Of a stretch of 54,185 nucleotides of DNA, positions 3,636-49,533 are shown in pieces. A model generated the notes under the pieces. It saw only the letters and a list, made by a program, of their open reading frames with translations. It made no database searches and was not told the origin of the DNA. The stretch's first letter is position 1; every line of letters begins with the position of its first letter. The translations under genes and the position numbers were made by a program. Source of the stretch: Candidatus Moraniibacteriota bacterium (GTDB taxonomy: Bacteria; Patescibacteriota; Minisyncoccia; Moranbacterales; UBA1568); assembly GCA_023261645.1 (NCBI GenBank), contig JAHFOO010000006.1, positions 1 through 54,185 on the forward strand, in the 5' to 3' direction.

Positions 3636-3645
3636 ACTGTGATGA

Positions 3646-5223
3646 TCAAGGCTTCAAAGAAAATATCGTGAACCTGCCGAATGTGAGATATTCACCCACA
3701 TTCGTCTCTCTGCTCAAAATCTTGTCTCTGCTCTTGCTATTCTCTATAAGGAAGACCGGCACGGACGGATCAGTGTTCTTCTTTTTCTGAACCAGTTTGA
3801 TGCCGGACCTGCTTGTGAAGTATTGCATAGATTTCAAGGCTTTGAAAAGGTATTTGGCATCGCCGTCGACAGCCACTACTTTTGCGTCCGGAGTATGAGT
3901 GATAATAAACGCTGAGGAGAGCTCTACTTCCTTGAGGAGAACGTTGTCCATCCCTGCATCTGAATCCGTGAGATAGGACGCATACGTAGCGAAAGTCTTC
4001 TCGACAGAGAAGATATTCATACCGACAAGAACAATGACGATGCTCCACGCGAGAGCAGATCCGACTCTCGGAAACACCTCTCTTATATACTTCAGCCACA
4101 CACCCAAGAAAACGAACGGGACGAAAAGGGAAACCAGGAAGAATCGCATCGAAATTTCATTCGCCAGAGGAATGAGAAGCAGGAACGTCAGACTCGTAAA
4201 ACAAATAACTATACAGAGGAATGTTTTTTTCGCATACTCCGTTTCCTTCCTATACGAACGAAGTGTCAAGAAAAAACCGCCTACGAACAAAATGAGACCG
4301 GACGCGAAGGCAGGCAGACCATACCCACGTGTGACTGTCTTTGATTCGCAGGTATCGGAGCTATCATAGGAAGACAAGATATACGCACTGCTCTGCGAGA
4401 AACACACGATATTTTTTTCGATATTTTGTATGAGTCCGCTCCCCTTCTTTTCTTTCGTTCCGATACTTTTCAGGAATGCTCCGGAATTTTCTCCGCCTGT
4501 TTTTATTTCACTCACTATCTGAGGAATGTTGAGGAAGATAGCCATACAAAATACGACAACGCCAATTTTCCAGATATTTTTTTTCTGCCTATATAGAAGG
4601 TATCCGAACAGGCATAGTGCCACAGCAGGAAACAAGAGAAACGAGAGTGAATGGAGTTGTATGCCGATCCCGATTGCAACGCCCGGGACCACTGCCCACC
4701 ACTTCCAAGCGTTCTCTTTGGCGATGACAATCTCGTGCAGACTGTACAAAAACAAAAGTGACCAGAACGGGAGTGAATTGGGATTCCAGGCGAAACGCGA
4801 GTACTTTACCACATAAGCAGAAACAGCGAAAATGGCCGTAAGGGAGAGTGCTGTTTTCACGTCGAAATATTTTCGGAGAAAGAAAAAAAGAAGCGGTATG
4901 GAGAGAATGGAAAACAAGAGATCGGGATAGGCCATCTTGTCCGGAGAGTTCCCGAATATCTTCGCAGAGGCGATTTGGAAATAATAAAAGGCAGGACCAA
5001 CCTTGAATTCCGTCCCTCCCGCTTTCGGTCCGAGGAGCGGTATATCCGTCTTCCCATCGATCACATCGCTCGCTATTCCAGCATCTCGCGACTGATCCGC
5101 ATTGAACCGAAGCCAGTCGTGAAAGGTATAAGTGCGGAAAAAAACACCGACACAAAGAAGAACAATAAGCGCCCAGACATGCCAGGAAAATTTTTGACTC
5201 AATACTGAGAAATATTTTTTCAT
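3646..5223 (-). CDS. GT-C glycosyltransferase paralog (DQSRDA type)
   Basis: The 525-residue paralog has FFRTYTFHDW, then DQSRDA (residues 43-48), GPKAGGTEFKVGP-x-FYYF and YSRFAWNPNSLPF. It has about ten membrane helices and a short C-terminal extracytoplasmic domain. In the GT-C fold the first loop holds the catalytic acidic residue, and the conserved Asp of DQSRD is the best candidate here (inference). It lies 6 bp from the upstream paralog and 10 bp from the downstream one, in one leftward operon. Acceptor and donor are unknown. Confidence 0.8.
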   Translation of the reverse strand: MKKYFSVLSQKFSWHVWALIVLLCVGVFFRTYTFHDWLRFNADQSRDAGIASDVIDGKTDIPLLGPKAGGTEFKVGPAFYYFQIASAKIFGNSPDKMAYPDLLFSILSIPLLFFFLRKYFDVKTALSLTAIFAVSAYVVKYSRFAWNPNSLPFWSLLFLYSLHEIVIAKENAWKWWAVVPGVAIGIGIQLHSLSFLLFPAVALCLFGYLLYRQKKNIWKIGVVVFCMAIFLNIPQIVSEIKTGGENSGAFLKSIGTKEKKGSGLIQNIEKNIVCFSQSSAYILSSYDSSDTCESKTVTRGYGLPAFASGLILFVGGFFLTLRSYRKETEYAKKTFLCIVICFTSLTFLLLIPLANEISMRFFLVSLFVPFVFLGVWLKYIREVFPRVGSALAWSIVIVLVGMNIFSVEKTFATYASYLTDSDAGMDNVLLKEVELSSAFIITHTPDAKVVAVDGDAKYLFKALKSMQYFTSRSGIKLVQKKKNTDPSVPVFLIENSKSRDKILSRETNVGEYLTFGRFTIFSLKP

Positions 5224-5229
5224 AACAGA

Positions 5230-6840
5230 TTACTGTTTCTTTAATTGATGTAAACTCATTCTCCCAAAATTCACGCTTTCTATCAACACATAGTGACTGG
5301 TTTCAAATGAATCTCCAGCTTCCAAGGCTTTAGTCATGAAAAAATAATGTCTTTCAGACGTCGGGATGGTTTTTCTCTCGATGTACATTAGTTTGAAATC
5401 CTTTCTTTCTGCCAAATATTTCAACGATTTATAATACGTGGATGCGTACTGAGCTCCACCGAAGAAGATCGCCTCCTTCTCAGGGAAAGATTTCTCAATC
5501 ATATAATCGACTATGCGCTCTGCTTCACCCAAAACGACGAACCCGGAATCCCCCTGTGTACCCGTTGAGAGGTTATGTGCTTGTGCTATGAGCGTGTGAG
5601 CATTCGCCAAAAATAAAAATGCAAACAAGAATATGACAGTAGGAATAAAGAACTTATGTGCAAGCTTTTCTCTCAACCAATCGATCCAGAGTCCGAGGAG
5701 AATAAACGGTATGAATGTCGTATGAATGAAGTATCGCAAAGGAGCATCGCGTGCAACAGAAAAAAGGATACAGAAAGAGAGAAGACTGTAGAAGAGTATC
5801 AACACAAGGAAATACTTACGGCGAAGAATCGTTTCTTTTCGAATACGGACAAGGAGCAATCCATAACCGACAACGGAAAAGAGTATGCTCACGGCAATAC
5901 CGATTACATATACGACATAGAGAAGATGATTTTTTGTCTTTTCCGGATATTTGAGAAGTTTCAAGAAAATGAAGTTTCCCGTATCTCCAAGAGAAGATAG
6001 AATATGAATGTTCGCTTCCGAATGAGAGAGACTGTCCGCCTGCAAATTCTGTATAAATCTATTCACCCCGCTCTGAGACCTATCCGTGGAAGCGACCAAA
6101 AACCGCTGCGCGTTGGCACCGCCCGTTTCCCATTCACTCTTTATCTGTCCGAAGTTGAACGCAAGGGCGACAAAAACTATTATTGCTATTTTCCCGAACA
6201 TTCTCCAGTTCTTCTTCAACAGAAAAAGAAATATCAACGAAGAAAGTACCGGTAGTAAAAGCAGTAAAAGCGTATGAAGCTGTATTCCCACACCGAGAGA
6301 AATTCCCAGAAGGACTATCCACACAGAATGTGTCTTTTCACGATGCTCAAGAAATTTCAACATCGCATACAGATACAACATCACAAAGAAAGGGATGGGA
6401 TTCGGGTTCCAGGCGAAACGCGAGTACTCTATCGTATAGAATGAAATGGCGTAAAGTCCTGTCAAAGCAAGGGATAGATTTTTTTCAAAGTATTTTCTGA
6501 GAAGAAAATAGAAAAGAGGAATTGCCAAAATGGAAAAAAACAAATCGGGGTAAGCAAGAATAGCAACATCACTCCCGAATATCTCTCCCGAAATTATCTG
6601 AAAATAGTAATAGATCGGACCGAGTTTGAAATGCGTATTGCTCGCATCAGCACCCAAGAGCGGCCAAGACGCGGTATTATTCAGAACCTTTTCCACAAGT
6701 ACGGCGTCCCGTGCCTGATCAGATCCGAAATGGAGCCACGTATGAAAATTATAGGTGCGAAGGAAAATCCCTATCGCAACAATCACGAAGATTGTGATCC
6801 ATTCCCACTTCCTTTCTCTAAATTTCTTTCTTATGTTCAT
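5230..6840 (-). CDS. GT-C glycosyltransferase paralog (DQARDA type)
   Basis: The 536-residue paralog has one N-terminal helix after a basic start, FLRTYNFHTW, DQARDA (residues 41-46), GADASNTHFKLGPIYYYF and YSRFAWNPNPIPF, then further membrane helices and a C-terminal soluble part of about 110 residues. It is closest in motif content to the 2007-3635 protein. The gene starts 6 bp after the stop of the upstream paralog, which argues for translation from one message. Donor and acceptor sugars cannot be read from sequence. Confidence 0.8.
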   Translation of the reverse strand: MNIRKKFRERKWEWITIFVIVAIGIFLRTYNFHTWLHFGSDQARDAVLVEKVLNNTASWPLLGADASNTHFKLGPIYYYFQIISGEIFGSDVAILAYPDLFFSILAIPLFYFLLRKYFEKNLSLALTGLYAISFYTIEYSRFAWNPNPIPFFVMLYLYAMLKFLEHREKTHSVWIVLLGISLGVGIQLHTLLLLLLPVLSSLIFLFLLKKNWRMFGKIAIIVFVALAFNFGQIKSEWETGGANAQRFLVASTDRSQSGVNRFIQNLQADSLSHSEANIHILSSLGDTGNFIFLKLLKYPEKTKNHLLYVVYVIGIAVSILFSVVGYGLLLVRIRKETILRRKYFLVLILFYSLLSFCILFSVARDAPLRYFIHTTFIPFILLGLWIDWLREKLAHKFFIPTVIFLFAFLFLANAHTLIAQAHNLSTGTQGDSGFVVLGEAERIVDYMIEKSFPEKEAIFFGGAQYASTYYKSLKYLAERKDFKLMYIERKTIPTSERHYFFMTKALEAGDSFETSHYVLIESVNFGRMSLHQLKKQ

Positions 6841-6846
6841 TGCCTC

Positions 6847-8556
6847 TTACTTACGGATCAAATTCCAGACATCTCCCCAATATACCCTGCTGTTTCTTGT
6901 TATTTTCTCGGGCGTAAAAGCTGTCTCTCTGCTATTCTCTTTTACTACGGATGCCTCTGTCATATCCGTAGGATAAAAACGAGTAACCAAAATACCGCCA
7001 GCATCGACAACCGCATCGCGAGTTTCATTCATCATAAATTCCGGTGTAGCTTCATTCGGAAGTGAGATGAAGAAATAACATCCCTTTGGACCGGTCTGGA
7101 AATATTTCTTTTCAGAACCTATGACTGAAAAGAGATTCCTTTGAAGCAATGCGTATTCGATGGAATGATCATATTCCCGGATGCTTTTGGACATAAAGAA
7201 AAAAATAGGGCCTCGTTCTGTGCAAGATGTATTGATTACCTGTGCAACTCTTTCGAAATGTCCCCACGTCAGCCAAAAACTTTTTCCCTTGCTATTCTTT
7301 TCTCCGGTACTCGTCGCTGTTTGCTGTGCATCACTCAATTCAAAAAACCATTTTGTCGTAGCATACGCATTGCTGAACAGAATGATACCGAGACCGAAAA
7401 TCGTCAAGGTCGTAACGAGGCGCGGATAGCATATATTTCTTCGAAGGAATACCAAGATGTATCCGAAATAGAGATATGGCATCATCATAAACGGCAGAGA
7501 GAACCTCGGACGGTCAATTTTAGTTGCCAACGGAATATAGAGCAGAAAATAAACTCCTATCAATATGAGTGTCCACTGCAGAAAATTCCGCTTTGTTCTA
7601 TTTTGTTCGCCACGAAGCAAAAGTATGTTCGCCAGAAACCCAGTTCCGAAGAAAATGCCTGCGAGGAAGATGAGTTTATTTCCTGGATCCACGATACCGA
7701 GCATAATACGTACAGAATATTTCGCAAACATAATCATATCTTGGAAGATGTTTTGGAAAATCCCCTGTGAGGAAGCCTTGCTCGAAATAGCTGAGAAAAA
7801 CAATCGCGTATTCTCTCCGTGTTTGAAATATTCACTGAGGAATACGGGCAGATATACGAGACAGACGCTAGCCAAAAAAATAAGAATGACTTTGTATGAA
7901 AGAACTTTTTTGGCGTCCTTGAGATGAAGCAATACAAAGAGTATCAAAGCGAGAGGAAGACCGAGGAAAGCGCTAAAATGAAGCTGTAAGGCTATGGCAA
8001 GCGATATGCCAGCAACAAAAGCCCACCAGAGTGGTCGTCGTTTTTTGGACTCCATATCCGTATCATAGAGTGCAAGTATCGCATACGAGAAAACGAGCGT
8101 GAAAAAAAGCGTGGAATTGGGATTCCAAGCGAATCTACCGTATTCTATCGCAAGGAAAGAAACGGCGAGCATCCCCGCCATTGCAAGCGACCACAGAGGA
8201 GAGAAATAGCGTCTGGAAAAAAGAAAAAACAATGGAATAGCGAGTATCGAGAAGAAAAGATCCGGATATCCCAACACAGGCGCACTGACACTCTGGAAAA
8301 GGAGCGCTGATATATATTGAAAATCATAAAATATTGGCCCCAGCCGGAGCATCGTCCCTCCGGCCCGCGGACCGAGGAGAGGCAGTGATTCGACCCCTTC
8401 TCTATACACGTTGGAAATCATCGTAGCATCACGGAAAGCATCCCCTTTGAACTGCAGCCATTCATCGAAATGATACACACGAAAAAAAATACCGACCAAA
8501 ATAAGAATAGCCAGAATCCAGATATGTTTCGGAATTGTATTCAAGAAATCCTTCAT
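6847..8556 (-). CDS. GT-C glycosyltransferase paralog with altered loop-1 motif
   Basis: The 569-residue paralog keeps the family order (FFRVYHFDEW, GPRAGGTMLRLGP-x-FYDFQY, YGRFAWNPNS), but the loop-1 motif is GDAFRDA (residues 38-44) rather than DQ(A/S)RDA. The RDA part and one preceding Asp are kept with shifted spacing. FYDF replaces FYYF. About ten helices are followed by a long soluble C-terminal domain. It may use a different donor or acceptor from its neighbours (inference). The gap to the upstream gene is 48 bp. Confidence 0.8.
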   Translation of the reverse strand: MKDFLNTIPKHIWILAILILVGIFFRVYHFDEWLQFKGDAFRDATMISNVYREGVESLPLLGPRAGGTMLRLGPIFYDFQYISALLFQSVSAPVLGYPDLFFSILAIPLFFLFSRRYFSPLWSLAMAGMLAVSFLAIEYGRFAWNPNSTLFFTLVFSYAILALYDTDMESKKRRPLWWAFVAGISLAIALQLHFSAFLGLPLALILFVLLHLKDAKKVLSYKVILIFLASVCLVYLPVFLSEYFKHGENTRLFFSAISSKASSQGIFQNIFQDMIMFAKYSVRIMLGIVDPGNKLIFLAGIFFGTGFLANILLLRGEQNRTKRNFLQWTLILIGVYFLLYIPLATKIDRPRFSLPFMMMPYLYFGYILVFLRRNICYPRLVTTLTIFGLGIILFSNAYATTKWFFELSDAQQTATSTGEKNSKGKSFWLTWGHFERVAQVINTSCTERGPIFFFMSKSIREYDHSIEYALLQRNLFSVIGSEKKYFQTGPKGCYFFISLPNEATPEFMMNETRDAVVDAGGILVTRFYPTDMTEASVVKENSRETAFTPEKITRNSRVYWGDVWNLIRK

Positions 8557-8604
8557 TATTTGTTGTAAAAAGAGAGAAGCAGGCTATTCTATACAGAAAG
8601 TCTC

Positions 8605-10374
8605 TTACTCTCCCCCATCAATCTGTACCGCATCCCCGCTCTTCGCAATACCGAACACGTCTCCCCAGAAGATTCTATCCGTACTCCCGCCTTTCCGGCT
8701 GAATCGATATTCATCGAATATCTGTCTCTTCGGAAAATTTATTTCGTACACCATCAATTGCCCGAACTGCTTCTGATCCAACACGACGAGATCTTCGCTG
8801 AATTTCTTGGTTACGGGGGCGATGCCATTTTTCGCGGGTGTCACTGCGAAATACTGAGCATTCGGTTCCGCCGTTATCTTCATAGTCATGAAATTGAAAT
8901 CCTTTTCGTGTTTTGAATAGAGCAAGAATTCAATCGGTCTCACATGTTCCGGTTTCACATAATAGAAGAGTGTCGAGCCAGCCTGATGCCGAGCATACAT
9001 CCAGTCAGTCACTCCCTGGAGTTGTCCGAGCGTGACACCGTCTTTGTTTTTCAGAATGAGTGTCCGATCGATTTCAGTAGTTCGCACCTGGGCGCTCGCC
9101 TGTTCCGCGAACCAGAGCGCCGTCCCGCGCATATTGATGGCGAGTACGGCCATCGTGATGAGCGCTGTCGCAACCAGTGCCTTCTTCCCGAATCGCTCTT
9201 CCAAAAACTCATAGAGAAAACCGAGAAGAATGAATGGTACTGCAAAAACGACGATATAGAAACGTGGACGGAGCTGGAAGGCGACGGGAATCGTCAGAAT
9301 AGTGAACACCGTGAACCACAAGAGTATGAGCGCCAGGAAATCTCTGGATTGCTTGTTTTCCATGATCCGGAGCCGATAGAGCACCAAGAGGAGACCGATG
9401 GACATCACGAGTGCCGTCGCTCCGACAGGCAAGACATTCTTTTCCAGATCATTCTTGTAGCAACTCGATGTCGTAAGGAGACAATAATAATTAAGATTCT
9501 CGGTTATATCCTTCTTTATTTTTTCAACCAATGGTCTCTTTTCCCCTTTCGATCCCAAAGCTTCGAAAAAGTTGTGCGTATTTTGACCATTTTTCATCAC
9601 ATCACTGATGATGACTGGGGTATAGAAAACAAGAAATACTCCCAAGGCGATAACAAAGAAGAGAAAAAATTGTTTCAGTGCCGTTTTTTGAAAAAGAGCC
9701 TTCAGACTGTCACGATTCCACACTCGGAGATGGAAGAGAATGAGCAATCCGGAAATACCGAGCAAACTGAAAAATCCGAAGAAATGCAGTTGTGAACCGA
9801 TAGTGATACCCGTGACCCACAAGATCAGCCACCATTTCTTCCACGAAGGACGATCGTCATTCAAAAACCGGAGTAATCCATAGAAACTGAGAATGATGAA
9901 GAACTGCAAGGAATTGGGATTCCAGGCAAAACGAGAATACTGAATAATGAGAAAAGAAAAAGCGTACATCGCCGTGATATACAGAGAATGTCGCCGAGAA
10001 AAATAGAGTCTCAGAAAAAGGAACAGAAGTGGGATGACTGCAATCGAAAAGAACAAATCGGGATACGCGAAGACTGACGGATGAGTGGAGTCGAATATCT
10101 TACCGGAAAGGTATTGGAAATAATAATACACCGGGCCGAGTCGCAACATCCCGTGTTCGAGTTTCACGGCTCCGACCCGCGCACCAAGAAGTGGCAGATA
10201 CTCCGGCCCATTGATGACAGCATTGCTGATAAGAAGAGCATCGCGAGACTGATCCATCTTGAAATACAGCCACTCGTCGAAATGGTAGGCACGTACAAAA
10301 ATGGCTCCCACAATGACGACAAGGAGCGCTATTACCACCCAATGCTTCTTCAAATAATCACCGTATCCGGACAT
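8605..10374 (-). CDS. GT-C glycosyltransferase paralog, first gene of leftward operon
   Basis: The 589-residue paralog has FVRAYHFDEW, DQSRDA (residues 41-46), a block LLGARVGAVKLEHGMLRLGPVYYYFQY that is longer than in its neighbours, and YSRFAWNPNSLQF. About ten membrane helices and an extracytoplasmic C-terminal domain follow. It is the promoter-proximal gene of the six-gene leftward run and has a good promoter 40-70 bp upstream (10413-10441). Family role: polyprenyl-phosphate-sugar dependent transfer on the outer face of the membrane. Substrates are unknown. Confidence 0.8.
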   Translation of the reverse strand: MSGYGDYLKKHWVVIALLVVIVGAIFVRAYHFDEWLYFKMDQSRDALLISNAVINGPEYLPLLGARVGAVKLEHGMLRLGPVYYYFQYLSGKIFDSTHPSVFAYPDLFFSIAVIPLLFLFLRLYFSRRHSLYITAMYAFSFLIIQYSRFAWNPNSLQFFIILSFYGLLRFLNDDRPSWKKWWLILWVTGITIGSQLHFFGFFSLLGISGLLILFHLRVWNRDSLKALFQKTALKQFFLFFVIALGVFLVFYTPVIISDVMKNGQNTHNFFEALGSKGEKRPLVEKIKKDITENLNYYCLLTTSSCYKNDLEKNVLPVGATALVMSIGLLLVLYRLRIMENKQSRDFLALILLWFTVFTILTIPVAFQLRPRFYIVVFAVPFILLGFLYEFLEERFGKKALVATALITMAVLAINMRGTALWFAEQASAQVRTTEIDRTLILKNKDGVTLGQLQGVTDWMYARHQAGSTLFYYVKPEHVRPIEFLLYSKHEKDFNFMTMKITAEPNAQYFAVTPAKNGIAPVTKKFSEDLVVLDQKQFGQLMVYEINFPKRQIFDEYRFSRKGGSTDRIFWGDVFGIAKSGDAVQIDGGE

Positions 10375-10412
10375 ACATATACCGAAAAAATTATCCCGAA
10401 ACTATCATCTGA

Positions 10413-10441
10413 ATATTATCACGAGTAGTACTCTTCGTAAA
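10413..10441 (-). promoter_or_regulatory. Promoter of the leftward GT-C operon
   Basis: On the minus strand TTTACG (10441-10436) and TAATAT (10418-10413) are separated by 17 bp. This is a sigma70-type promoter just upstream of the gene starting at 10374. Confidence 0.6.
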
Positions 10442-10474
10442 GCCTAGAATCTCCTTATATTGCCCTTGTTTCCT

Positions 10475-10502
10475 TTGCAAAATACCACATTTCCTGTATT
10501 AT
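10475..10502 (+). promoter_or_regulatory. Promoter of the rightward GT-C/GH28 operon
   Basis: TTGCAA (10475-10480) and TATTAT (10497-10502) are 16 bp apart, giving a start point about 40 bp ahead of the ATG at 10550. Together with the minus-strand promoter at 10413-10441 it forms a divergent pair in a 175-bp gap. Confidence 0.55.
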
Positions 10503-10549
10503 GAGACAACAGATGCCGTCAAAAATTCTTTCGTATTCTCGCTCACAGT

Positions 10550-12391
10550 ATGAAAACATCTTTCAAGAGATATTTCGCACCTCTGTTCATCACCATCATC
10601 CTTTTGACCAACCTCGGTTTCGGCCTTTCGCGCCTCGGGAATTATTCCTCCGTCGACGAACCGTATTGGACGTACGGCCGTATTACCAAGTTTTGGAACG
10701 GTGTCAAAGCCCACAAATGGAAGACAACCAGTGTCAACGACAAACCAGGCATAACAGTGGCTATTCTTTCCGGTGCAGGACTCATCAAAATGGATCCTAT
10801 GCCTTACAAAAATCTGCGAGGCGATGTCAAAACAGACTCGCAACTGAAAGACATAAACGACATCAACTTCTATTTCCGTCTGCCGATTTATCTTTTCTGT
10901 ATATTCCTCCTCCCATTTTTTTATATTTTCCTCAAAAAACTTTTCGATGAGACGACAGCGATCATAGCCTTCGCTTTCATCGGTCTCTCCCCCATCCTTC
11001 TCGGTATTTCCCTCATCATCAACCCGGATTCGCTTCTCTGGATATTCCTGCCATTATCACTTCTCTCCTATTTCGTCTTCCAGAAGAATACAGAGAAGAA
11101 ATACCTCTATACGAGCGGACTGCTCCTCGGCCTCTCTCTTCTGACCAAATACGTCTCCAATATTCTCTATATCTTTTTTTTCTTCCTTCCTTTTCTCGAA
11201 TACATCTTTCTCAAAGAAAAACCGGAAATCGTAGCCTATCTGAAAAAATCCCTCAGAGATTATGCGATTATCGTCGGGATTTCAATGCTCACTTTTTTCG
11301 TCCTCTATCCGGCCACCTGGGTCAATCCGAATATACTCCTCGAAGGCACATTTCTCAGCAAAGCCTTCAAAACGACCTGGCCTCTTTTCGTAGGAATCAT
11401 CGCTTTGATCCTCGCGGATATCTTCCTGTTCAGAAGTATTGTCACCACGAAAACCCTCGAATTTTTCTCTCGGAATAAAACGATGCTTCTTCAAACCGTC
11501 TCAATATTGTTCCTCATCGGCATCACATTCGTTCTCCTCAACACCTATACCGATATGTCGATACTCGATACCAACGGAACGATCGCTTCACCCAAAGGTA
11601 CCGGAGAGGGATCGCGTCTCCTCCTTTACGCGGATAGGACGGTCGCAGATATCTATAGTCTCATTTTTGCCATTTCACCACTCGCTTTGTTCTTCCTTGT
11701 CACAGCCCTGGTGCTGATCTGGAAGAAAAAATGGCAAGAATCATATGAAGCGAAAATCGTGTTTTATCTCACACTCTTCATCCTCCTGTATTATCTCGCA
11801 TCGACTGTCAACAATGTCGTCGCCACTGTAAGGTATCAGATCACGCTCTATCCATTCGCCTTCATCATTTCTGCCATCGGTCTCGCACATATCCTTTCGC
11901 TCGAAAAGGTGAAGAGATATCTGCCATCATATATGGCGTACCTACTCATCTTCATCATCGGAACAATCAGCCTCATCGGTGTCAAACCATTTTATTTCGC
12001 CTACACATCTCTGCTTCTTCCGGAAAAATATTTCGTCAATCTCAAAGATATGGGCGACGGAAGCTTCGAAGCAGGAGCATATCTGAACAGTCTCCCAGAA
12101 CCGGAGAAACTCATCGTGTGGTCCGACAAAGGGGCGGTCTGCGCGGTCTTCAAGGGAAAATGTATCATCGGATTTACTGACAAGCGCGTCAAAGGAGTCA
12201 ATTTCGATTATGTCGTCGTGTCTTCCGGACGCAGATCACGCACTCTCAAGATGTCCGGAAATGCACATACACCGATAGATTTCAAAACGTCCTATGCTTC
12301 GGAAGACACTGATTTCAAAGTCACTTTCGGCGGTCGTCCGAATAATTACGTGAAAGTCTTCTCGATCGATACAGTCACCAAAAAACCCTGA
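10550..12391 (+). CDS. GT-C membrane glycosyltransferase (PMT_2-like)
   Basis: The 613-residue membrane protein has an N-terminal helix (about residues 11-28), a loop-1 motif SSVDEPYW (33-40) with the Asp-Glu pair typical of GT39-like enzymes, and a conserved NDKPGITVA-like segment. About eleven helices are followed by a C-terminal soluble domain of about 130 residues. It is not a close copy of the DQxRD paralogs next door. Its stop codon overlaps the next start (TGATG at 12389-12393), so it is translationally coupled to the GH28-like gene. It probably transfers a sugar from a lipid-phosphate donor outside the cell membrane; the acceptor may be the glycan trimmed by its partner (inference). 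Confidence 0.8.
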   Translation: MKTSFKRYFAPLFITIILLTNLGFGLSRLGNYSSVDEPYWTYGRITKFWNGVKAHKWKTTSVNDKPGITVAILSGAGLIKMDPMPYKNLRGDVKTDSQLKDINDINFYFRLPIYLFCIFLLPFFYIFLKKLFDETTAIIAFAFIGLSPILLGISLIINPDSLLWIFLPLSLLSYFVFQKNTEKKYLYTSGLLLGLSLLTKYVSNILYIFFFFLPFLEYIFLKEKPEIVAYLKKSLRDYAIIVGISMLTFFVLYPATWVNPNILLEGTFLSKAFKTTWPLFVGIIALILADIFLFRSIVTTKTLEFFSRNKTMLLQTVSILFLIGITFVLLNTYTDMSILDTNGTIASPKGTGEGSRLLLYADRTVADIYSLIFAISPLALFFLVTALVLIWKKKWQESYEAKIVFYLTLFILLYYLASTVNNVVATVRYQITLYPFAFIISAIGLAHILSLEKVKRYLPSYMAYLLIFIIGTISLIGVKPFYFAYTSLLLPEKYFVNLKDMGDGSFEAGAYLNSLPEPEKLIVWSDKGAVCAVFKGKCIIGFTDKRVKGVNFDYVVVSSGRRSRTLKMSGNAHTPIDFKTSYASEDTDFKVTFGGRPNNYVKVFSIDTVTKKP

Positions 12392-14079
12392 TGGAATTCC
12401 TCTCTCCGATACGGAAAAAATTCGAGGATCGCTTCCCTTCAAAAAAATGGAGGTTATTTTTATTTTTTATCGTCGTTTTTTTCGTCATCATCGGAATATA
12501 TTCTTTTACCAAGACGTCCTTCGATACGATATCTTCTTCGGATATTTTTCTGAAGAAGCAAGTTCTGCAGACGAAAGAAGCTCCAGTCATCCACTATCCC
12601 TCCCAAGAAATATCGATTGAAACCCCTTTCGCGGACACGACGCTCGTCATCAATGAGCCTGTCTTCCCGGATCGCGTCTGTTCCATCGATGACTATGGAG
12701 CGGTAGCAGGCGGAAAAACGATGAATACGCTGGCATTCAAAAAAGCTATCGATGCCTGCTCTGCTTTGGGTGGAGGAAAAATCGATGTTCCTGCGGGAAT
12801 ATGGCTCTCAGGACCGATCCATCTCACAAACAATATAGACCTCAATATCGAACGAGGCGCCACGATCCTTTTCAGTGCCGATCCCGATGATTATCTCCCA
12901 GTTGTCTTTTCGCGGTTCGAAGGTATCGAATACTACAATTATTCCCCTCCGATCTATGCCAAGGATGCGACCAATGTCGCTGTCACCGGACTCGGTACAG
13001 TCGATGGACAAGGAGCGCTAGAGTGGTGGAAGTTCGGCTCAAAATCTATAAACGCACTTTATGCAATGGGTGATGATGATGTGCCGGTGGCAGAAAGAAT
13101 TTTTGGAATAAAGGAGCAGGGACTGCGACCAGCTTTCATCGAATGCGTCAATTGTCACAACGTGCTTATCGAAAATATACGGATCGTCAATGGACCGATG
13201 TGGACCATCCATCCTGTCTATAGCGACAATGTCATCGTACGTGGCGTCGATATTGCCACTGATCCGGGTCCGAGCACCGATGGCGTCGCCGTCGATTCTT
13301 CTTCGAATGTGCTTATCGAAAACTCTACCTTCCGAACCGGTGATGATGCTATCGTCCTCAAGTCAGGCCGAGACAAAGAAGGTATGAGGCTTCATATCCC
13401 GACTGAAAATGTCATCATCCGTAACAATGTCATCAAAGAGGCTCACGGAGCGATCGCCATCGGGAGCGAAATGTCCGGCGATGTGCGTAATGTCTTTGCA
13501 CACGATACCACTGTCAATTCAGTACAATTCGGATTCCGTGTCAAAGCGACAAGAGGACGCGGAGGTATCGTCGAGAATATCTGGATAGAGGATATGCAAA
13601 TGAGAAGCGTGAGCATCGAAGCCATCCAGATAACGACAGACTACGGACTTCCTTTCAAAATCGATAGTACTGCGATACCGCTCTTTCGGAATATTCATCT
13701 GAAAAATATTTCCGCCGAGAAGACCCGTGGAACCATCACCGTCGATGGTCTCCCGGAACTCCCCATAAGCAATGTTTCGTTCGAAAACATAACATTTCTC
13801 GGCACGCGGGGCGGCCCAGAACTCTCCAACGCGGATGACATACGTTTCCAGAACACGAACCTGACATTCAAGTATGATGATCCGCTTTTCTCCATAACAG
13901 ATAGCACCAACATCGATATTCACACTACGCCTTGCCCGCTCTACACCCTTGTTTGCCTTTCTGTCAAAGGAGACAAATCTTCGAATATCAATATTATGGA
14001 CAGCGGTTTTTCCACTGAGAAGAAGAGAATAATCGTGCCCAAAGGCAAAGAGAATGATACTGCACTCTTAATCCGATAA
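12391..14079 (+). CDS. Membrane-anchored GH28 (polygalacturonase-like) protein
   Basis: The 562-residue protein has a cytoplasmic basic N-terminus, one membrane anchor (about residues 22-40), a spacer, and a right-handed beta-helix starting with DDYGAVAGGKT near residue 100. The GH28 signature is present in order: STDG (295-298, usually NTDG) with a following Asp, GDD (317-319), HG (352-353) and RVK (383-385, usually RIK). The two Asp of GDD and the other acidic residue are the expected catalytic set. Family role: hydrolysis of galacturonan-type polysaccharide. Here it is cotranscribed between two GT-C genes, suggesting trimming or remodelling of the cell's own uronic acid polymer, or attack on host polymers. 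The Asn-to-Ser change leaves exact activity open. Confidence 0.82.
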   Translation: MEFLSPIRKKFEDRFPSKKWRLFLFFIVVFFVIIGIYSFTKTSFDTISSSDIFLKKQVLQTKEAPVIHYPSQEISIETPFADTTLVINEPVFPDRVCSIDDYGAVAGGKTMNTLAFKKAIDACSALGGGKIDVPAGIWLSGPIHLTNNIDLNIERGATILFSADPDDYLPVVFSRFEGIEYYNYSPPIYAKDATNVAVTGLGTVDGQGALEWWKFGSKSINALYAMGDDDVPVAERIFGIKEQGLRPAFIECVNCHNVLIENIRIVNGPMWTIHPVYSDNVIVRGVDIATDPGPSTDGVAVDSSSNVLIENSTFRTGDDAIVLKSGRDKEGMRLHIPTENVIIRNNVIKEAHGAIAIGSEMSGDVRNVFAHDTTVNSVQFGFRVKATRGRGGIVENIWIEDMQMRSVSIEAIQITTDYGLPFKIDSTAIPLFRNIHLKNISAEKTRGTITVDGLPELPISNVSFENITFLGTRGGPELSNADDIRFQNTNLTFKYDDPLFSITDSTNIDIHTTPCPLYTLVCLSVKGDKSSNINIMDSGFSTEKKRIIVPKGKENDTALLIR

Positions 14080-14088
14080 AAATACGAA

Positions 14089-15813
14089 GTGATGTTCACC
14101 TCTCTCATCACCTTCTACAAAGGAAACAAACGAACAGCCCTTATCTTGACTGCCATCATTCTTATTGGTATTTTTCTCCGTACGTATCATTTTTCAGATT
14201 GGTTGCTTTTCGAGATAGACCAGTCATACGACACGCGCATCGTTTCAGAAGCCATCGATAACGGTATCAGCAATCTTCCACTTCTCGGCCCTACCGCCGG
14301 AGGAGGCAGGGCGCTCCGCCTCGGTCCGGCTTTTTATTATATGGAGTATGTGAGCGCTCTCGTCTTCGGCAATACGCCTACCGGTCACGCGATGTTGGTT
14401 CTCATCTTTTCCATTCTCGCCATCCCGCTCTTCTTTTTCTTCATCCGGAGATATTTCAGTACGTCATTATCACTTGCACTCGTCGCTATTTTTTCGATGT
14501 CGGTATATCTGGTACTCTACGGACGTTTTTCGTGGAGTCCGAATGTCCTGCCATTTCTCACTCTCTTGTCTTTCTATGCCCTTTTACGCGCCGTTTCCGA
14601 GACCGAAAACAATCGTGCAAGATGGTTTCTCATCGCCATCGCAACCATCGCTCTCACCTCGCAGATTCACTTCAATGCCTTCTTCACCGTTCCTGTCATC
14701 ACGATTCTTTTCTTGCTCTATAAACGGCCGAGATTTGATTGGAAAACCTGGGTTATAGCATTCGGCATCGTCACTCTCATCTACTCTCCGATGATACTTT
14801 CCGATATCAGTACGAATGGAGAAAATATCAGTTTCTTCTTGAAGAAAATATCCAAACCAAGCAGTCCGCTCAGAAAATTCTTCCATAAATCAGTCGTAGA
14901 TCTGCAGTACACCGCATCAGGATACTTCTTCGTCAATTCCGGTATAGACCGTATCAGTGGTGGCCGTATCAAAGGAAATGGTTTCCAAAACGATGCCGAC
15001 CTGCCCTGGCGCATACTGGCTATCATTCTTTTCTTCGCACAAGTACTCATCCTTATGCGAAATATCGTGAAAGAGAAAATAAAGAACAAAAAAGATTTCC
15101 TCGTTTTGACACTTTTGTGGGTAGGCGTCCCTTTCGCATATTTTTATTCTCTCATTTCGAGCAATTTCCAAATTTACCCGAGATTCTATCTTCTTATCGC
15201 ACCGGTCGCCATAGTCCTGCTTGGTCTCTTCCTGGAAAAGATACAACCGAGAGAAAATACTCATCAACGGATATTTCTCATCGGCACCCTTTTTATTTTT
15301 CTCCTCCCGAGTCTGACAAGAATAGAGAACCATTTCCTCCAACTGAATGACCCGACACGAAACGATGTTGCTACAGAAACCGAAGATATTTTCCCGAATG
15401 ATAAACGTCTGACGCTCCAAGAACAACTCGCTATTACCGATTATCTCGTATCGAAGCAGGCAATGAATCATTACCCTATCTATATCAGCACCTATCACGA
15501 GTATGACCCAATATTTTGGTATCATCTGAACAAACGAGGCATACCCTATTTCGACTCTATCAGTTATGATACCCTCTATGCAGAAGGAAACTATTTTCTG
15601 ATTCAGTACCCGACAGACGGTACGCGTGGTACAGAAAAAGCCTTCAATATCGTGGAAGAGAAGAAATTCAGTACGCTGACCGTCTATACCCTCGCTCCTG
15701 ACGATGGCAAGATACGCGTACTGCCAGCAGGCGTACGAAACCGAGAAAAATCAGAACAAACCGTGCAGATACAACAACTGAAAACTTGGAAAAGCTTGCT
15801 TGACGAAAAATAG
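14089..15813 (+). CDS. GT-C glycosyltransferase paralog (DQSYDT variant)
   Basis: The 574-residue protein has the same architecture as the leftward paralogs: FLRTYHFSDW, then DQSYDT (residues 44-49) where others have DQ(A/S)RDA, GPTAGGGRALRLGPAFYYMEY, and YGRFSWSPNVLPF. About ten helices and a C-terminal soluble domain follow. The Arg of the DQxRD motif is Tyr here. It lies 9 bp after the GH28-like gene and ends the rightward operon. This shows that the family expanded on both sides of the divergent promoter region. Donor and acceptor are unknown. Confidence 0.8.
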   Translation: MMFTSLITFYKGNKRTALILTAIILIGIFLRTYHFSDWLLFEIDQSYDTRIVSEAIDNGISNLPLLGPTAGGGRALRLGPAFYYMEYVSALVFGNTPTGHAMLVLIFSILAIPLFFFFIRRYFSTSLSLALVAIFSMSVYLVLYGRFSWSPNVLPFLTLLSFYALLRAVSETENNRARWFLIAIATIALTSQIHFNAFFTVPVITILFLLYKRPRFDWKTWVIAFGIVTLIYSPMILSDISTNGENISFFLKKISKPSSPLRKFFHKSVVDLQYTASGYFFVNSGIDRISGGRIKGNGFQNDADLPWRILAIILFFAQVLILMRNIVKEKIKNKKDFLVLTLLWVGVPFAYFYSLISSNFQIYPRFYLLIAPVAIVLLGLFLEKIQPRENTHQRIFLIGTLFIFLLPSLTRIENHFLQLNDPTRNDVATETEDIFPNDKRLTLQEQLAITDYLVSKQAMNHYPIYISTYHEYDPIFWYHLNKRGIPYFDSISYDTLYAEGNYFLIQYPTDGTRGTEKAFNIVEEKKFSTLTVYTLAPDDGKIRVLPAGVRNREKSEQTVQIQQLKTWKSLLDEK

Positions 15814-43043: not shown

Positions 43044-44093
43044 CTAAAAATAATTTTCCACAGCAAATTCGAATTGATCTACGAATATTTTTTTAAACAT
43101 CGAGGCGTTGTTTTTTTCATAGAAAAGTAGTACAGCTTTCTTGTATTCACTTTCATCCACACTCCGATAGGAGAGCGGGCAATAATTATACGCCAATAAA
43201 ATTGCATTTCCAACGAGCCTAGCCGTTCTCTTGTTCCCATCCTCAAATGGTTGAATATAAGAAAGAAGCAAAACAAAAACAAGCGATTTCCAAAGTGGAT
43301 GAGAAATACCGTCTATGGTTTTTATCATCTGTTCCATAGCTTCTCTTACTTGAAATTCGTTATCAAGTGGACGGTAAACAGTTCCTGTTATTCCAACGAT
43401 ATTCTTTCGCAAACCTCTCGTAACACCAAGCCCTTCGATAAGAATCGCGTGGACATCCTCAATATTTCGGAGTGATAGCGCCTCAAACATCAAAGCATTT
43501 TCATGGATGTATTCAATCGCTCGTTTATGATTGATAAGCATTATCGCTTCCTCTTTTTTGTGTCCCTCTGCCTCTTTTCTTTGGCGAAGAAGAATTTCTG
43601 TATCAATAAGCGAGTATGTATTCCCTTCTATCTGAGAAGATTTCCAACTCAGTTCGATCGTGAGGCGTTCAAATTCTTTACGAAGAGCTGTCGGACTAAG
43701 GGCGGACACTCTTTTTCGATACTCATCATTGATCGTATCCAGTTGCAAAAATTCTTGTGTAGAAAAAAGATATTCCATACTTTTGAAAATATCTTGCTGA
43801 AATGATTTTTTTGTATTTGTCCTCTGATCAGGAGATTTTTCAAAGTATGCTTTTGAATCAATAGGAGACAATAACGTACCCTTCGGAGTAATCTCATACA
43901 CAACCGATCGTCCGAGACCTTTTTTTTGAACAAAGTCATTCTTCAGAAGGACTTCTATATCCCGAATAACTGTCATTCGAGAAATATCAATACCTAATGA
44001 TACGGCTAAATATTCACGGATACTCTGTGTTTGAACATTCGTATTATTATCAATAAAATTTAATATGAGTGCTTGTCTAGATGACATTTCCAT
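43044..44093 (-). CDS. Fic-domain protein with HTH, catalytic His replaced by Gln
   Basis: The 349-residue protein has an N-terminal DNA-binding winged helix (about 1-70). An inhibitory-helix motif SSQIEGN follows (152-158, the S-x3-E-G of class II Fic proteins), then a Fic core with I-Q-P-F-E-D-G-N-K-R-T-A-R (280-292). Canonical Fic proteins have HPFx(D/E)GN(G/K)R; here the His that activates the target hydroxyl is Gln281 (codon CAA, read from the minus strand). AMP transfer should therefore be reduced or lost, so the protein may act as a regulator or binding protein. A 15-bp palindrome inside its promoter fits autoregulation. Confidence 0.88.
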   Translation of the reverse strand: MEMSSRQALILNFIDNNTNVQTQSIREYLAVSLGIDISRMTVIRDIEVLLKNDFVQKKGLGRSVVYEITPKGTLLSPIDSKAYFEKSPDQRTNTKKSFQQDIFKSMEYLFSTQEFLQLDTINDEYRKRVSALSPTALRKEFERLTIELSWKSSQIEGNTYSLIDTEILLRQRKEAEGHKKEEAIMLINHKRAIEYIHENALMFEALSLRNIEDVHAILIEGLGVTRGLRKNIVGITGTVYRPLDNEFQVREAMEQMIKTIDGISHPLWKSLVFVLLLSYIQPFEDGNKRTARLVGNAILLAYNYCPLSYRSVDESEYKKAVLLFYEKNNASMFKKIFVDQFEFAVENYF

Positions 44094-45645: not shown

Positions 45646-46047
45646 TTATTTCGTTCGTCTATAAGCGAAGATGATTCTAACAAGTGACGTGATTATAAAG
45701 ATAGCGTACAGAACGAAAAGGATGGCAAAAGAGAAAGCTCCCTGAGCCACTCCACCGAAACCACTCTGTTGATGACTTGCGTTGAGAAAATAAGTAACGA
45801 TGATGATAATCGGCACAAAGAATCGTGCAAATCGCCACCAGGCCTGAAATACTTCATCTCGCATTTTGTAGGTAATGAGCGAGAAAAAGAAAACAGGCAA
45901 AAAAGACAAAAAAAGAAAAAATATCTGACCAAAAAAATCATCATCACGCACTCTACACCATGATGAATGACAGATTGAACCAGAGACAAAAATTCCCACA
46001 AAATAAATTAAATAAATCAATGACGCTAAAAATACTATCTTCTTCAT
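45646..46047 (-). CDS. Hypothetical four-helix membrane protein
   Basis: The 133-residue protein has four predicted membrane segments (about 5-23, 45-60, 72-88, 103-125) and a short Cys-containing loop, C-H-S-S-W-C-R-V-R-D, between helices 1 and 2. Family not recognised. Lies 9 bp after the stop side of the large secreted protein gene, so the two may share a transcript. No further function can be inferred. Confidence 0.6.
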   Translation of the reverse strand: MKKIVFLASLIYLIYFVGIFVSGSICHSSWCRVRDDDFFGQIFFLFLSFLPVFFFSLITYKMRDEVFQAWWRFARFFVPIIIIVTYFLNASHQQSGFGGVAQGAFSFAILFVLYAIFIITSLVRIIFAYRRTK

Positions 46048-46056
46048 ATCTATATT

Positions 46057-49000
46057 TCAATAATTAATTTTCATACTCCCTCTCTCTGTCATTATACTCG
46101 GAATTATCATTCCTGATAGCTTCACCCGGGTGGAGCGATGCCTAATATCATCATTCTCATCGGAAATGAGTTCTCTCGGTTTCTCTGTTATCCACGTCTC
46201 GTTTTTCTTGAAAAAATACTCTGATTCAAGATTCATTGTCGGTATTCTCAACTGAGCATCGAGCTTTGCATATTTTCCACGCCAATCTTTCTGCCATTCA
46301 TACTGCATACTCGCATCTTTCGCCTCTACACTGATGCCATCATACGAAAGAGATTGGAGAATATACTTGAGATGATTTTTCTCATTTTCTTTTTCTTCAA
46401 AGACTATGACCGTCGTATGTCCTGCAAGATCGGTGAGAGTCGTGGTAAGAAGAGTCCTCTTCTCTCTGCCATTCTTCTCTCGCTTGTCATCGCGATTGAA
46501 CTGAGAAAAGAATGAATACCAATGTTTCTCCTCCGACACAGATTCAGTGTCTTGTATTATAGATTCCACGCTTACTACTGAAACAGATTGTCCGAGATTG
46601 TCAACGCCGGTGATTTCAAGTTTCTGTATTGTCGAATTGAAAACAATTTTTGCTTCTGGTGCTGTCTTATCTATCTTGATCGTTTCTGTTTTTACTTCTT
46701 CCTTATTCCCCTGTTTATCAGTAGAAAAATATTGAACAGTTGTTGTGCCTTCATTTGAGAGAACGAGAGGATCGATATAAGTATTCCAACTCGTGCCATC
46801 ATCAAAAGAATATTCTGTCTTCTCGATACCGCTCCCATTTGTTTCGTCTTGTGCAGTCAGTGTTACCGTCACATCGCTCGTATGCCAGTCATTGGTTCCC
46901 TGCGTACCTGAAGGAGCAATAGTGGTCACAGGAGGCGTGATATCGAACACTACTCGTTCACCAGGTTTGGGCTCGAGAGAGAAATCAGTCGCACCGTCAC
47001 CATCATAATCCACCACAAGCGGTGAAGCGCCAGCTATGGTACCGTCGGCAAATGTCATCGTTACCGTGGTATCAGGAGAAGTCGGGATAGCGGAGAAGGT
47101 TGTTGTTTCGGTAATATCATCACCTGTCACTTCTTGTACTTCAAGTGTAAACGAGCCTACAGATTGTCCATCCAGCACTATTGTTGGATCACTCCCTGCG
47201 GGGACAGAAATATATTGCACTTCGCCGAAACGACGATACTCCGCATCTGGATAAGCATCATCCTCTGCGCTGATAATATTGCCCTGACTATCGTGAGCAG
47301 AGAGAGCAAGAGGTGAGTGGAGATAATAGCGGAGACGTTTTTCTGAAGATGCCGGAGGCTCAGAATCTGAAACAAAATCTGGCAACGCTGTCGATATTCC
47401 TATGAGAATACTATTTTTAATGAAACTACGTAGCTCGGAAACTTCGAGGATATCTGCATGTTTCCTTTCTAGTGTTGAAGGCGTGTCATAACTCGCTAAA
47501 TCCACCCAATATCGTTTCGCATTCACCACACTCGTACTTATTGCCAAAGCACTCGGAGCGACGACTGTGCCATCACCATCAACGACAAGCTCTGGAGTAT
47601 ATTCGAGTTTCGGTACGCGCGAGGAGCAGATCTTTCCTGCTTCGTGGAGACATTCTTCCCCTGTCCAATACTTGATCGTTCCGAGAGTATCCTCTCCGAA
47701 ACCGGCTATCTGATATACGGCAATCGATGATGGGATAACCGAATCATCCAGCGTTTGATGTACATTATCGCTACTCGACAATAATCCAGAATTCACCATA
47801 CTTGGACTGACGATATCAGAAGAATCAGCTGTAACCTTTCCTGTATTATCCAAAAGAAAACTCTTGAGTTCAGTTGACGTATCGACTTTGTTCCCATAAT
47901 TATCAATAAACGGCTGAGTGAGGGTTCCATCTTCAAAAGTAATGACCGGCGTATCGACACCGCTTCCTTCGCCTGAAAAATATGAATCTGATGGTAAAAG
48001 ATTGTATGCACTCGGCATATTCTGTGCCAGTGCACGTGCTGTCCTCGGAGCAAGTGCGAAAGGCAACCAATTCACAGGAAGTCCCTGGTCATAACCATGG
48101 AGTATGGCACCGATAGCTTGCGGTGTTCCTGATTGTGGCACTGCTACGAAAACAATTTTATCGATAAGCTGTTCTGCTTCCGCACCCAGCTTGTTCACCA
48201 GTGCTTTGGCCACCAATCCACCATTGGAATGCGCAATAAGTGTGACCTTGCCAGATTTCGATGAACTCGCGAGACGACGCAACTCCTCTATGATATATGG
48301 TGTATCTGTAGAATGAGTATAAGAAACATTGTCTCCAGTTTTTGTGCCACTATTCAATGTGTCATCCAAAGAAAGGCGCCAATCATACGGCATAGCGACA
48401 TAATCTGCTATGAGGCCATCAACATTCTTCCATTTATCCAGATCTGCAAGAAACGATTTGTAGATATTCCCTTTAATTGGAATATAGGCGTTATCAAGCA
48501 CATCTTTTGTATAAATATCGTCTCGGATACTCTTCCCATTTTCATCGAGATACAGTTTCTCGGCGTCTGCATCGCTACTCGGTTCCCAAACTTTTTTATC
48601 AGCGGTATAGAGTCGGCTCGATTCGATTCCTGGTAAAAACAAAACGTTCGAATAGCAATTCTCGGTACAAGAAACATCGTCAAAATTCGGTTCAGTTTCA
48701 AGCCATGGTCGGAAGATAACCCCATCTCCCATAACACTATTCCCCTGTCCCTGTAAATTTGCCTTCTGTGGATCAGAATGGTAAAAATAAGGACCTGTTA
48801 CATCACCCCACCAATTATTTGATGCATCAACTGACATACTGCCTCGTATTCCTGATAAGAAAGCCTGTATTCCTCTTCCATTATTTATTATTGAGCTGTT
48901 GCTTATTTTCGGTATACGACTTGATATCGAAGTTGCAACTTCTAAACCAATGTTATTATCAGATAAAACAAGCGATCTCAGAAGTGGGATCGTATCTCTG

Positions 49001-49533
49001 ATGTAAATTCCCGATCTAGAGTGTTTAATTTCGGTATTCTCTATACTAACCAATCCTTGATAAGTGACACTGGGACTATAATTCATATAAGAAAAACCTA
49101 TACTTGCATAAAGGATACTTACATACTTTATTTTTACAATATTCGCAGTATTGTATATCCCAATCGATCCCCATTGTCCTCTCAAAATACCTTGATAACA
49201 GAATGGATATCCATAATTCTGCGTATTTCCACCGTAGTCATTGTCGCAAACAGAGGTAAAAATAATTTTCTCTGACGGTGTTCCGATAGCAGTAAATGTG
49301 TTCTGAAGAGCAAGTGATACTCCTGTATTTTTGAATTTAACAATTGTTCCAGGTTCTATAGTTAGCGGGGCGGTAACATAAATAGTATTCAAAACAATGT
49401 AAGGACTTCCTGTCTTATTCCAAACAGTCTGGGTTGTAATGTTGCTTTGTATTTCTGTGAATGCTTGAGCAGAGTAATTACAAAAAAATACGCCGGCAAA
49501 AATTATCATTCCAAAAAATAATTTTCTCAACAT
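46057..49533 (-). CDS. Secreted beta-helix / LCAT-like hydrolase / OmpL47-repeat protein
   Basis: The product is 1158 residues from the Met of MLRKLFFGMIIF; the open frame extends 12 codons upstream. Signal peptide with probable cleavage after SAQA (about residue 24). Domains: right-handed beta-helix (about 25-280) ending with NNWWGDVTGPY; an alpha/beta hydrolase (about 295-640) resembling lecithin:cholesterol acyltransferases, with LPGIESSRL near 300, PYDWR near 383 and the nucleophile elbow AHSNGG (Ser about 436); then beta-sandwich and OmpL47/Big-like repeats with D-K-T-A-P-E. The C-terminus lacks an obvious membrane anchor. It may hydrolyse lipids or esters at the cell surface or on a host cell (inference). 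Substrate unknown. Confidence 0.82.
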   Translation of the reverse strand: MLRKLFFGMIIFAGVFFCNYSAQAFTEIQSNITTQTVWNKTGSPYIVLNTIYVTAPLTIEPGTIVKFKNTGVSLALQNTFTAIGTPSEKIIFTSVCDNDYGGNTQNYGYPFCYQGILRGQWGSIGIYNTANIVKIKYVSILYASIGFSYMNYSPSVTYQGLVSIENTEIKHSRSGIYIRDTIPLLRSLVLSDNNIGLEVATSISSRIPKISNSSIINNGRGIQAFLSGIRGSMSVDASNNWWGDVTGPYFYHSDPQKANLQGQGNSVMGDGVIFRPWLETEPNFDDVSCTENCYSNVLFLPGIESSRLYTADKKVWEPSSDADAEKLYLDENGKSIRDDIYTKDVLDNAYIPIKGNIYKSFLADLDKWKNVDGLIADYVAMPYDWRLSLDDTLNSGTKTGDNVSYTHSTDTPYIIEELRRLASSSKSGKVTLIAHSNGGLVAKALVNKLGAEAEQLIDKIVFVAVPQSGTPQAIGAILHGYDQGLPVNWLPFALAPRTARALAQNMPSAYNLLPSDSYFSGEGSGVDTPVITFEDGTLTQPFIDNYGNKVDTSTELKSFLLDNTGKVTADSSDIVSPSMVNSGLLSSSDNVHQTLDDSVIPSSIAVYQIAGFGEDTLGTIKYWTGEECLHEAGKICSSRVPKLEYTPELVVDGDGTVVAPSALAISTSVVNAKRYWVDLASYDTPSTLERKHADILEVSELRSFIKNSILIGISTALPDFVSDSEPPASSEKRLRYYLHSPLALSAHDSQGNIISAEDDAYPDAEYRRFGEVQYISVPAGSDPTIVLDGQSVGSFTLEVQEVTGDDITETTTFSAIPTSPDTTVTMTFADGTIAGASPLVVDYDGDGATDFSLEPKPGERVVFDITPPVTTIAPSGTQGTNDWHTSDVTVTLTAQDETNGSGIEKTEYSFDDGTSWNTYIDPLVLSNEGTTTVQYFSTDKQGNKEEVKTETIKIDKTAPEAKIVFNSTIQKLEITGVDNLGQSVSVVSVESIIQDTESVSEEKHWYSFFSQFNRDDKREKNGREKRTLLTTTLTDLAGHTTVIVFEEKENEKNHLKYILQSLSYDGISVEAKDASMQYEWQKDWRGKYAKLDAQLRIPTMNLESEYFFKKNETWITEKPRELISDENDDIRHRSTRVKLSGMIIPSIMTERGSMKINY

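What the first reader, a model, noticed from the sequence alone, without database searches (positions are those of the whole stretch)
46057..49533. Secreted fusion of beta-helix, LCAT-like acyl hydrolase and OmpL47-type repeats
The single protein has a signal peptide, a NosD-like beta-helix with the NNWWGxxxGP motif, an LCAT-like hydrolase with AHSNGG nucleophile elbow, and C-terminal adhesion-type repeats. Many CPR bacteria are thought to live attached to other cells and to lack full lipid synthesis, so a surface acyltransferase/lipase could act on host membranes. That role is inference.
Basis: partly seen in the sequence, partly recalled or inferred. Interest (0 to 1): 0.6.

Follow-up and report, generated by a model that had tools for sequence, protein, structure and literature searches.

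The report
Surface phospholipase paired with membrane protein
A tiny, probably host-dependent bacterium that lacks key lipid-making genes carries an exported enzyme related to human lysosomal phospholipase, nearly always followed in its relatives by a small membrane protein that may shield the producer, which suggests how such bacteria could attack or harvest other cells' membranes.

Summary
ORF 46057-49533 (-) encodes a 1158-aa Sec-exported fusion: beta-helix-like N-terminus with NNWWGxxxGP, LCAT-family alpha/beta hydrolase, a beta-sandwich, one OmpL47 domain (not repeats) and an unassigned beta-rich C-terminus. The triad is complete: S436, D654 and H692 are invariant in 25 diverse relatives. 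The closest solved structures by profile are human group XV phospholipase A2 and LCAT. LCAT-domain genes occur in 60/95 related genomes and 62/380 across the phylum. The main new finding lies outside the given coordinates: a 133-aa four-helix membrane protein gene (45646-46047, no Pfam family) starts 9 nt after the stop. A small multi-TM gene directly follows 91/103 LCAT-fusion genes, against 28/442 other genes. The family is almost never found elsewhere, co-varies with the hydrolase rather than the terminal domains, and forms tandem arrays interleaved with 3'-end remnants of LCAT genes, as in known immunity-gene arrays. Best reading: an exported phospholipase A/transacylase acting on other cells' membranes, with a cognate self-protection protein. 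Activity, target and immunity are inferred, not shown.

The parts
46057..49533 (-). LCAT-fusion gene, 1158 aa (possible upstream GTG start at 49569)
   Evidence: homologs across CPR
49462..49533 (-). Sec signal peptide, residues 1-24 (AQA|F; no lipobox)
   Evidence: sequence read directly; helix 2-15 in model
48679..49461 (-). N-terminal beta-helix-like domain, residues 25-285
   Evidence: strand pattern (partly low pLDDT); Beta_helix/NosD Pfam hits in homologs; alignment A1
48790..48819 (-). NNWWGDVTGP motif, residues 239-248
   Evidence: G247 and P248 nearly invariant
47386..48666 (-). LCAT / group XV phospholipase A2-like alpha/beta hydrolase, residues 290-716
   Evidence: PF02450 E=1.9e-17; profile to human PLA2G15 E=6e-16 and LCAT about 2e-11
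48226..48228 (-). Catalytic Ser436 (AHSNGG nucleophile elbow)
   Evidence: invariant in 25 sequences; strand 430-435 / helix 438-449 in model
47572..47574 (-). Catalytic Asp654 (DGDGTV)
   Evidence: invariant; aligned with GDGTV of PLA2G15
47458..47460 (-). Catalytic His692 (KHADIL)
   Evidence: invariant
46948..47346 (-). Beta-sandwich following the hydrolase, residues 730-862
   Evidence: strands and pLDDT mostly 80-94; conserved
46672..46881 (-). Single OmpL47-type domain, residues 885-954
   Evidence: NF047446 E=3.5e-18
46060..46626 (-). C-terminal beta-rich domain of no assigned family, residues 970-1158
45646..46047 (-). Cognate small four-helix membrane protein (133 aa, two conserved Cys in the first loop, invariant Trp70 and Ser121); 9-nt gap to the LCAT stop

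Best explanation
A two-gene module. Gene 1 makes an exported, modular phospholipase A/transacylase of the group XV PLA2/LCAT kind that deacylates glycerolipids of neighbouring or host cells; the beta-helix and the beta-sandwich/OmpL47/C-terminal domains would serve display and binding. Gene 2 makes a small polytopic protein that sits in the producer's own membrane and most likely blocks the enzyme there (immunity-like self-protection). Lysolipids and fatty acids released could feed a cell that cannot make its own. Shown here by computation: domain architecture, intact triad, family assignment, strict gene pairing, co-variation of membrane protein with hydrolase, arrays with remnants, missing lipid genes. 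Inferred: catalytic activity, substrate, target cell, immunity role, lipid harvesting. Sub-estimates: acyl hydrolase/transacylase on lipids 0.75; membrane protein functionally tied to the enzyme 0.9; its role is immunity 0.5.
For: Family and triad. Export: signal peptide. Pairing: small multi-TM gene directly downstream of 91/103 LCAT-fusion genes against 28/442 other genes. In 95 genomes 46 of 47 family hits lie 3' of an LCAT-family match on the same strand, directly or further down a tandem array; the one exception is cut off by a contig end. Membrane-protein similarity tracks the hydrolase (Mantel r=0.50, partial 0.48, permutation p=0.005, the minimum for 199 permutations) and not the C- or N-terminus (partial 0.07 and -0.02). 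Arrays of divergent paralogs, several with LCAT 3'-end remnants: L059, L171, L130, L137, L184. Lone intact copy in a 98% complete genome without LCAT match (G555); intact copy beside an LCAT gene broken in several frames (L186). Precedents: Vibrio cholerae immunity arrays with effector 3' ends (PMC5361080), secreted phospholipase A TslA with immunity lipoprotein (PMC10730906), polytopic membrane immunity proteins with orphan copies (PMC12744356). CPR cells are reported enriched in lysolipids, Kaiserbacteria included (PMC7242380).
Against: No activity, toxicity or neutralisation data. The enzyme type is constant, unlike classic polymorphic toxins, and no dedicated delivery system was found. Hydrolase and membrane protein may co-vary only because both are inherited vertically while flanking domains shuffle. 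Array genes may be decaying duplicates; there is only one clear orphan in a non-producer genome. About 7 genes with the conserved GxxY C-terminus have no recognisable partner next to them. LCAT presence does not rise clearly where lipid-synthesis genes are missing (47/70 without PF01066 against 14/25 with it; counted by hand).
Confidence: 0.45

Rival explanations
1. The enzyme is a lipid-acquisition phospholipase and the membrane protein is an accessory for it (membrane anchor or docking partner, folding factor, or importer of lysolipids/fatty acids), not an immunity protein.
For: Strict pairing and co-variation with the hydrolase fit any obligate partner. Own genome lacks KAS and CDP-alcohol transferase but has a PlsC-like acyltransferase that might re-acylate lysolipids. 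CPR lysolipid enrichment and proposed uptake (PMC7242380); secreted phospholipase proposed for lipid supply in Vampirococcus (PMC8080830).
Against: Tandem arrays of diverged, mostly intact copies without enzyme, a lone copy in a genome without LCAT, and intact copies beside broken enzymes are not expected of an accessory. No consistent resemblance to transporters or known foldases.
Confidence: 0.35
2. The hydrolase acts on non-membrane esters, such as acylated exopolysaccharide, polyhydroxyalkanoate or other polymers.
For: The window is rich in polysaccharide and glycosyltransferase genes; beta-helix domains often bind carbohydrate (general knowledge); weak PhaZ7 matches in relatives.
Against: Best structural relatives are phospholipase/LCAT by many orders of magnitude over PhaZ7. 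The polysaccharide neighbourhood is a much less recurrent neighbour of homologs than the membrane-protein gene.
Confidence: 0.15
3. Catalytically irrelevant surface adhesin with a vestigial hydrolase.
For: Several beta-rich binding-type domains; full-length fold search is dominated by adhesin and S-layer Ig-like domains.
Against: Ser, Asp and His invariant over very divergent sequences imply retained catalysis.
Confidence: 0.05

Closest known systems
Human group XV phospholipase A2 (PLA2G15, lysosomal) and LCAT, Pfam PF02450
   Same: Alpha/beta hydrolase core, Ser-Asp-His triad with GDGTV Asp motif; profile E=6e-16 and about 2e-11
   Different: Bacterial, embedded between beta-helix and beta-sandwich/OmpL47 domains, paired with a membrane-protein gene; substrate untested
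TslA/TilA (S. aureus type VII-secreted phospholipase A with immunity lipoprotein, PMC10730906)
   Same: Exported phospholipase A encoded with a membrane-associated self-protection protein (the latter inferred here)
   Different: Sec signal instead of T7SS; partner is a four-helix integral membrane protein, not a lipoprotein; no sequence relation tested
EsxX/ExiCD (polytopic membrane immunity proteins, PMC12744356)
   Same: Multi-pass membrane protein as protection from an extracellular membrane-active toxin, with orphan copies (role inferred here)
   Different: EsxX is a membrane-depolarising toxin, not an enzyme; ExiCD is a pair of proteins
V. cholerae T6SS immunity-gene arrays (PMC5361080)
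   Same: Tandem immunity-like genes 3' of the effector, with a partial effector gene or 3'-end remnants between them
   Different: No T6SS seen here; a single enzyme type
Secreted phospholipase proposed in Vampirococcus lugosii (CPR, PMC8080830)
   Same: CPR secreted phospholipase proposed to disrupt host membrane and supply lipids
   Different: Relationship between the two proteins not tested; no paired membrane protein mentioned in the passages read

Membership tests
Pfam LCAT (PF02450) | Score above curated cut-off | tested here: met
   64 bits against 21
Pfam LCAT (PF02450) | Ser-Asp-His triad in order | tested here: met
   S436, D654, H692 invariant
Pfam LCAT (PF02450) | Phospholipase A or acyltransferase activity | not testable with these tools
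   needs enzyme assay
Alpha/beta hydrolase fold | Predicted fold of residues 290-716 | tested here: inconclusive
   Strand-elbow-helix around S436 as expected and mostly good pLDDT, but the Asp loop is below 50 and the full-length Foldseek hits were Ig-like domains, not hydrolases
OmpL47-type domain (NF047446) | Score above curated cut-off | tested here: met
   65.8 against 40 bits, one copy
Leptospira OmpL47 (NF047441 equivalog) | Score above curated cut-off | tested here: not met
   46.7 against 250 bits
NosD / right-handed beta-helix | Pfam profile match in this protein | tested here: not met
   no PF05048/PF13229 hit; hits only in homologs
NosD / right-handed beta-helix | NNWWGxxxGP motif and strand ladder | tested here: inconclusive
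   motif present; ladder partly low confidence
Toxin-immunity (polymorphic toxin) system | Small partner gene directly 3' of the effector | tested here: met
Toxin-immunity (polymorphic toxin) system | Orphan partner arrays with effector remnants | tested here: met
Toxin-immunity (polymorphic toxin) system | Variable C-terminal toxin domain on a conserved delivery part | tested here: not met
   hydrolase is central and of one type in all members examined
Toxin-immunity (polymorphic toxin) system | Toxicity neutralised by the partner | not testable with these tools
   needs co-expression

The most novel reading that the evidence does not exclude
Paceibacteria (Moran-, Kaiser-, Lloyd-, Zambryskibacteria and others) carry an undescribed contact-antagonism or host-exploitation system: a Sec-exported group XV PLA2-like enzyme plus a previously unnamed family of four-helix membrane immunity proteins, with orphan immunity arrays. 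It would also offer an enzyme for the lysolipid enrichment and lipid supply of bacteria that cannot make lipids.
Probability: 0.35. Interest if true: 0.85.

Novelty: new variant of a known kind. Interest (0 to 1): 0.62.

Why it matters
How CPR bacteria obtain membrane lipids without making them is an open question, and their reported lysolipid enrichment has no assigned enzyme (PMC7242380). A widespread exported phospholipase A candidate, from a domain family present in about 60% of sampled genomes of this order, is a direct test object. If the paired membrane protein is an immunity factor, it would also point to membrane-targeted antagonism among tiny symbiotic bacteria.

Tried and rejected
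Viral origin: viral contigs, phages and plasmids hold no relative at the thresholds used. Defence system: no PADLOC match for either protein. C-terminal domain as the membrane protein's cognate: first suspected from remnant arrays, rejected by partial Mantel and discordant-pair tests, though L054 looks like an exception. Polysaccharide operon membership: the sugar-gene neighbourhood is not the most recurrent neighbour; the membrane gene is. Negative association of LCAT with phospholipid synthesis genes: not seen. Fold of the membrane protein: no significant PDB match, no consistent Pfam family. Single-sequence PDB search found nothing useful; the A1 profile alone was weak, the broader A2 profile was decisive. 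A first script to align all proteins timed out, one had a bug, two paper queries were malformed, and one search was an unneeded look-up. No paper was found linking LCAT with CPR/Parcubacteria.

Full report
Observation. The ORF at 46057-49533 (-) is intact and single-copy in its 840-kb genome. It has a Sec signal peptide, NNWWGDVTGP at residues 239-248, an LCAT domain above Pfam's cut-off and one OmpL47-type domain above NCBIfam's cut-off. AlphaFold2 (24-sequence alignment, mean pLDDT 74) gives a strand-rich N-terminus with low-confidence gaps, a mixed alpha/beta region with a strand-elbow-helix at S436, then beta domains. The full-length fold search returned Ig-like, adhesin and S-layer domains, so it describes the C-terminal part and does not independently prove the hydrolase fold; atomic triad geometry could not be measured.

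Enzyme. In alignments of 24 close and 25 divergent family members, S436, D654 and H692 are invariant. A profile of the divergent set finds human group XV phospholipase A2 first among solved structures (E=6e-16) and LCAT (about 2e-11), with the same Ser and GDGTV-Asp motifs aligned. Group XV PLA2 removes sn-1 and sn-2 fatty acids from phospholipids (PMC7603386). The assignment to the LCAT family is tested; the activity is inference.

Distribution. LCAT passes the cut-off in 60 of 95 related genomes and 62 of 380 sampled across the phylum. A scan of 84,980 species genomes gave 228 relatives of the long form. The 80 best are Moran-, Kaiser-, Lloyd-, Zambryski-, Nomura-, Yonath-, Giovannoni- and Magasanikbacteria, 'Paceibacterota' or Patescibacteria, one labelled Saccharibacteria, or unnamed bacterial MAGs; the other 148 were not listed. 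The same-genus genome G004 carries a contig of identical length to Ca. Moraniibacteriota JAUSGT010000002.1, so the window is most likely from that lineage. Plasmid, phage and viral collections have none.

Modularity. The N-terminal domain, the hydrolase and the C-terminal domain recombine. For example C-termini 46-50% identical to this one occur on hydrolases that are only distantly related. Some relatives end in other C-terminal tails or hydrophobic segments.

The partner gene. Nine nucleotides after the LCAT stop begins a 133-aa gene with no Pfam or PADLOC family. Clustering of the genes around LCAT loci showed that its family is by far the most recurrent neighbour, lying on the 3' side and the same strand, usually 0-50 nt away. 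As a control, 91 of 103 LCAT-fusion genes but only 28 of 442 other genes in the same loci are followed directly by a small multi-TM ORF. Searching 95 whole genomes with the family profile gave 47 hits in 29 genomes; 46 lie 3' of an LCAT-family match on the same strand, directly or further down an array, and the other is truncated by a contig end. Over 384 genomes of the class, one clear lone copy (G555) was found in a genome with no LCAT match. Two conserved cysteines, an invariant Trp and an invariant Ser stand out. The model (pLDDT 84) is helical throughout, consistent with four membrane helices, and resembles nothing solved. Relatives with a different C-terminal domain carry an unrelated ~100-aa membrane protein in the same place.

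What it pairs with. Across 64 loci, similarity among membrane proteins follows similarity among hydrolases (Mantel r=0.50; partial 0.48, p=0.005 with 199 permutations) and not C- or N-terminal domains. Pairs with similar hydrolases but unrelated C-termini still have similar partners; the reverse is weak. Vertical inheritance of a stable core could produce the same pattern and was not excluded.

Arrays. Several loci carry two to seven partner genes in tandem. In L059 they alternate with fragments of the last ~75-90 residues of LCAT fusions; L137, L130 and L184 show the same idea. Copies within an array are 26-81% identical and mostly intact. In L186 the LCAT gene is broken in several frames while the partner is intact. 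This matches the pattern explained in Vibrio cholerae by displacement of effectors with retention of immunity genes (PMC5361080). Polytopic membrane immunity proteins with orphan copies (PMC12744356) and phospholipase A toxins with immunity proteins (PMC10730906) are known separately.

Lipid context. The window's genome has no ketoacyl synthase and no CDP-alcohol phosphatidyltransferase, and one PlsC-like acyltransferase. CPR-rich fractions are reported to be rich in lysolipids, with Kaiserbacteria correlated to specific lysolipids and phospholipase A suggested as a possible source (PMC7242380). Across relatives, LCAT presence is not clearly tied to absence of PF01066 (14/25 with it against 47/70 without), so the lipid-harvest idea is plausible but unproven.

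Verdict. The enzyme assignment is solid and the enzyme family itself is known. The near-obligate pairing with an unnamed membrane-protein family and the immunity-like arrays are, as far as the held literature shows, undescribed. I call it a new variant of a known kind.

Noticed in passing
window 425-15813: Tandem run of seven genes with PMT/PMT_2-type mannosyltransferase domains (plus one similar-sized gene without a Pfam hit) around a GH28 polygalacturonase-like beta-helix gene at 12391-14079.
   Followed up: partly
window 43044-44093: Fic-domain protein near the LCAT locus; a 343-aa protein that may be similar (unchecked) lies directly 3' of the LCAT gene in L051, which lacks the partner.
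   Followed up: no
L064 4242-4559, L066 641-928, L067 10692-10988, L068 11983-12291, L069 6379-6660: A second, unrelated ~100-aa membrane-protein family directly 3' of LCAT fusions that end in a FIMAH-like C-terminus.
   Followed up: partly
L059 (G006:C10), L171 and L172 (G083): Arrays of partner genes, in G083 with near-identical C-terminal halves but divergent N-terminal halves, suggesting gene conversion with a variable specificity region.
   Followed up: partly
L016 and L126 (G006): LCAT-fusion copies broken by stop codons or split frames in a genome with many partner genes.
   Followed up: no
L182 5610-6101 (G555:C10): Stand-alone partner gene in a 98% complete genome without detectable LCAT fusion.
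   Followed up: partly
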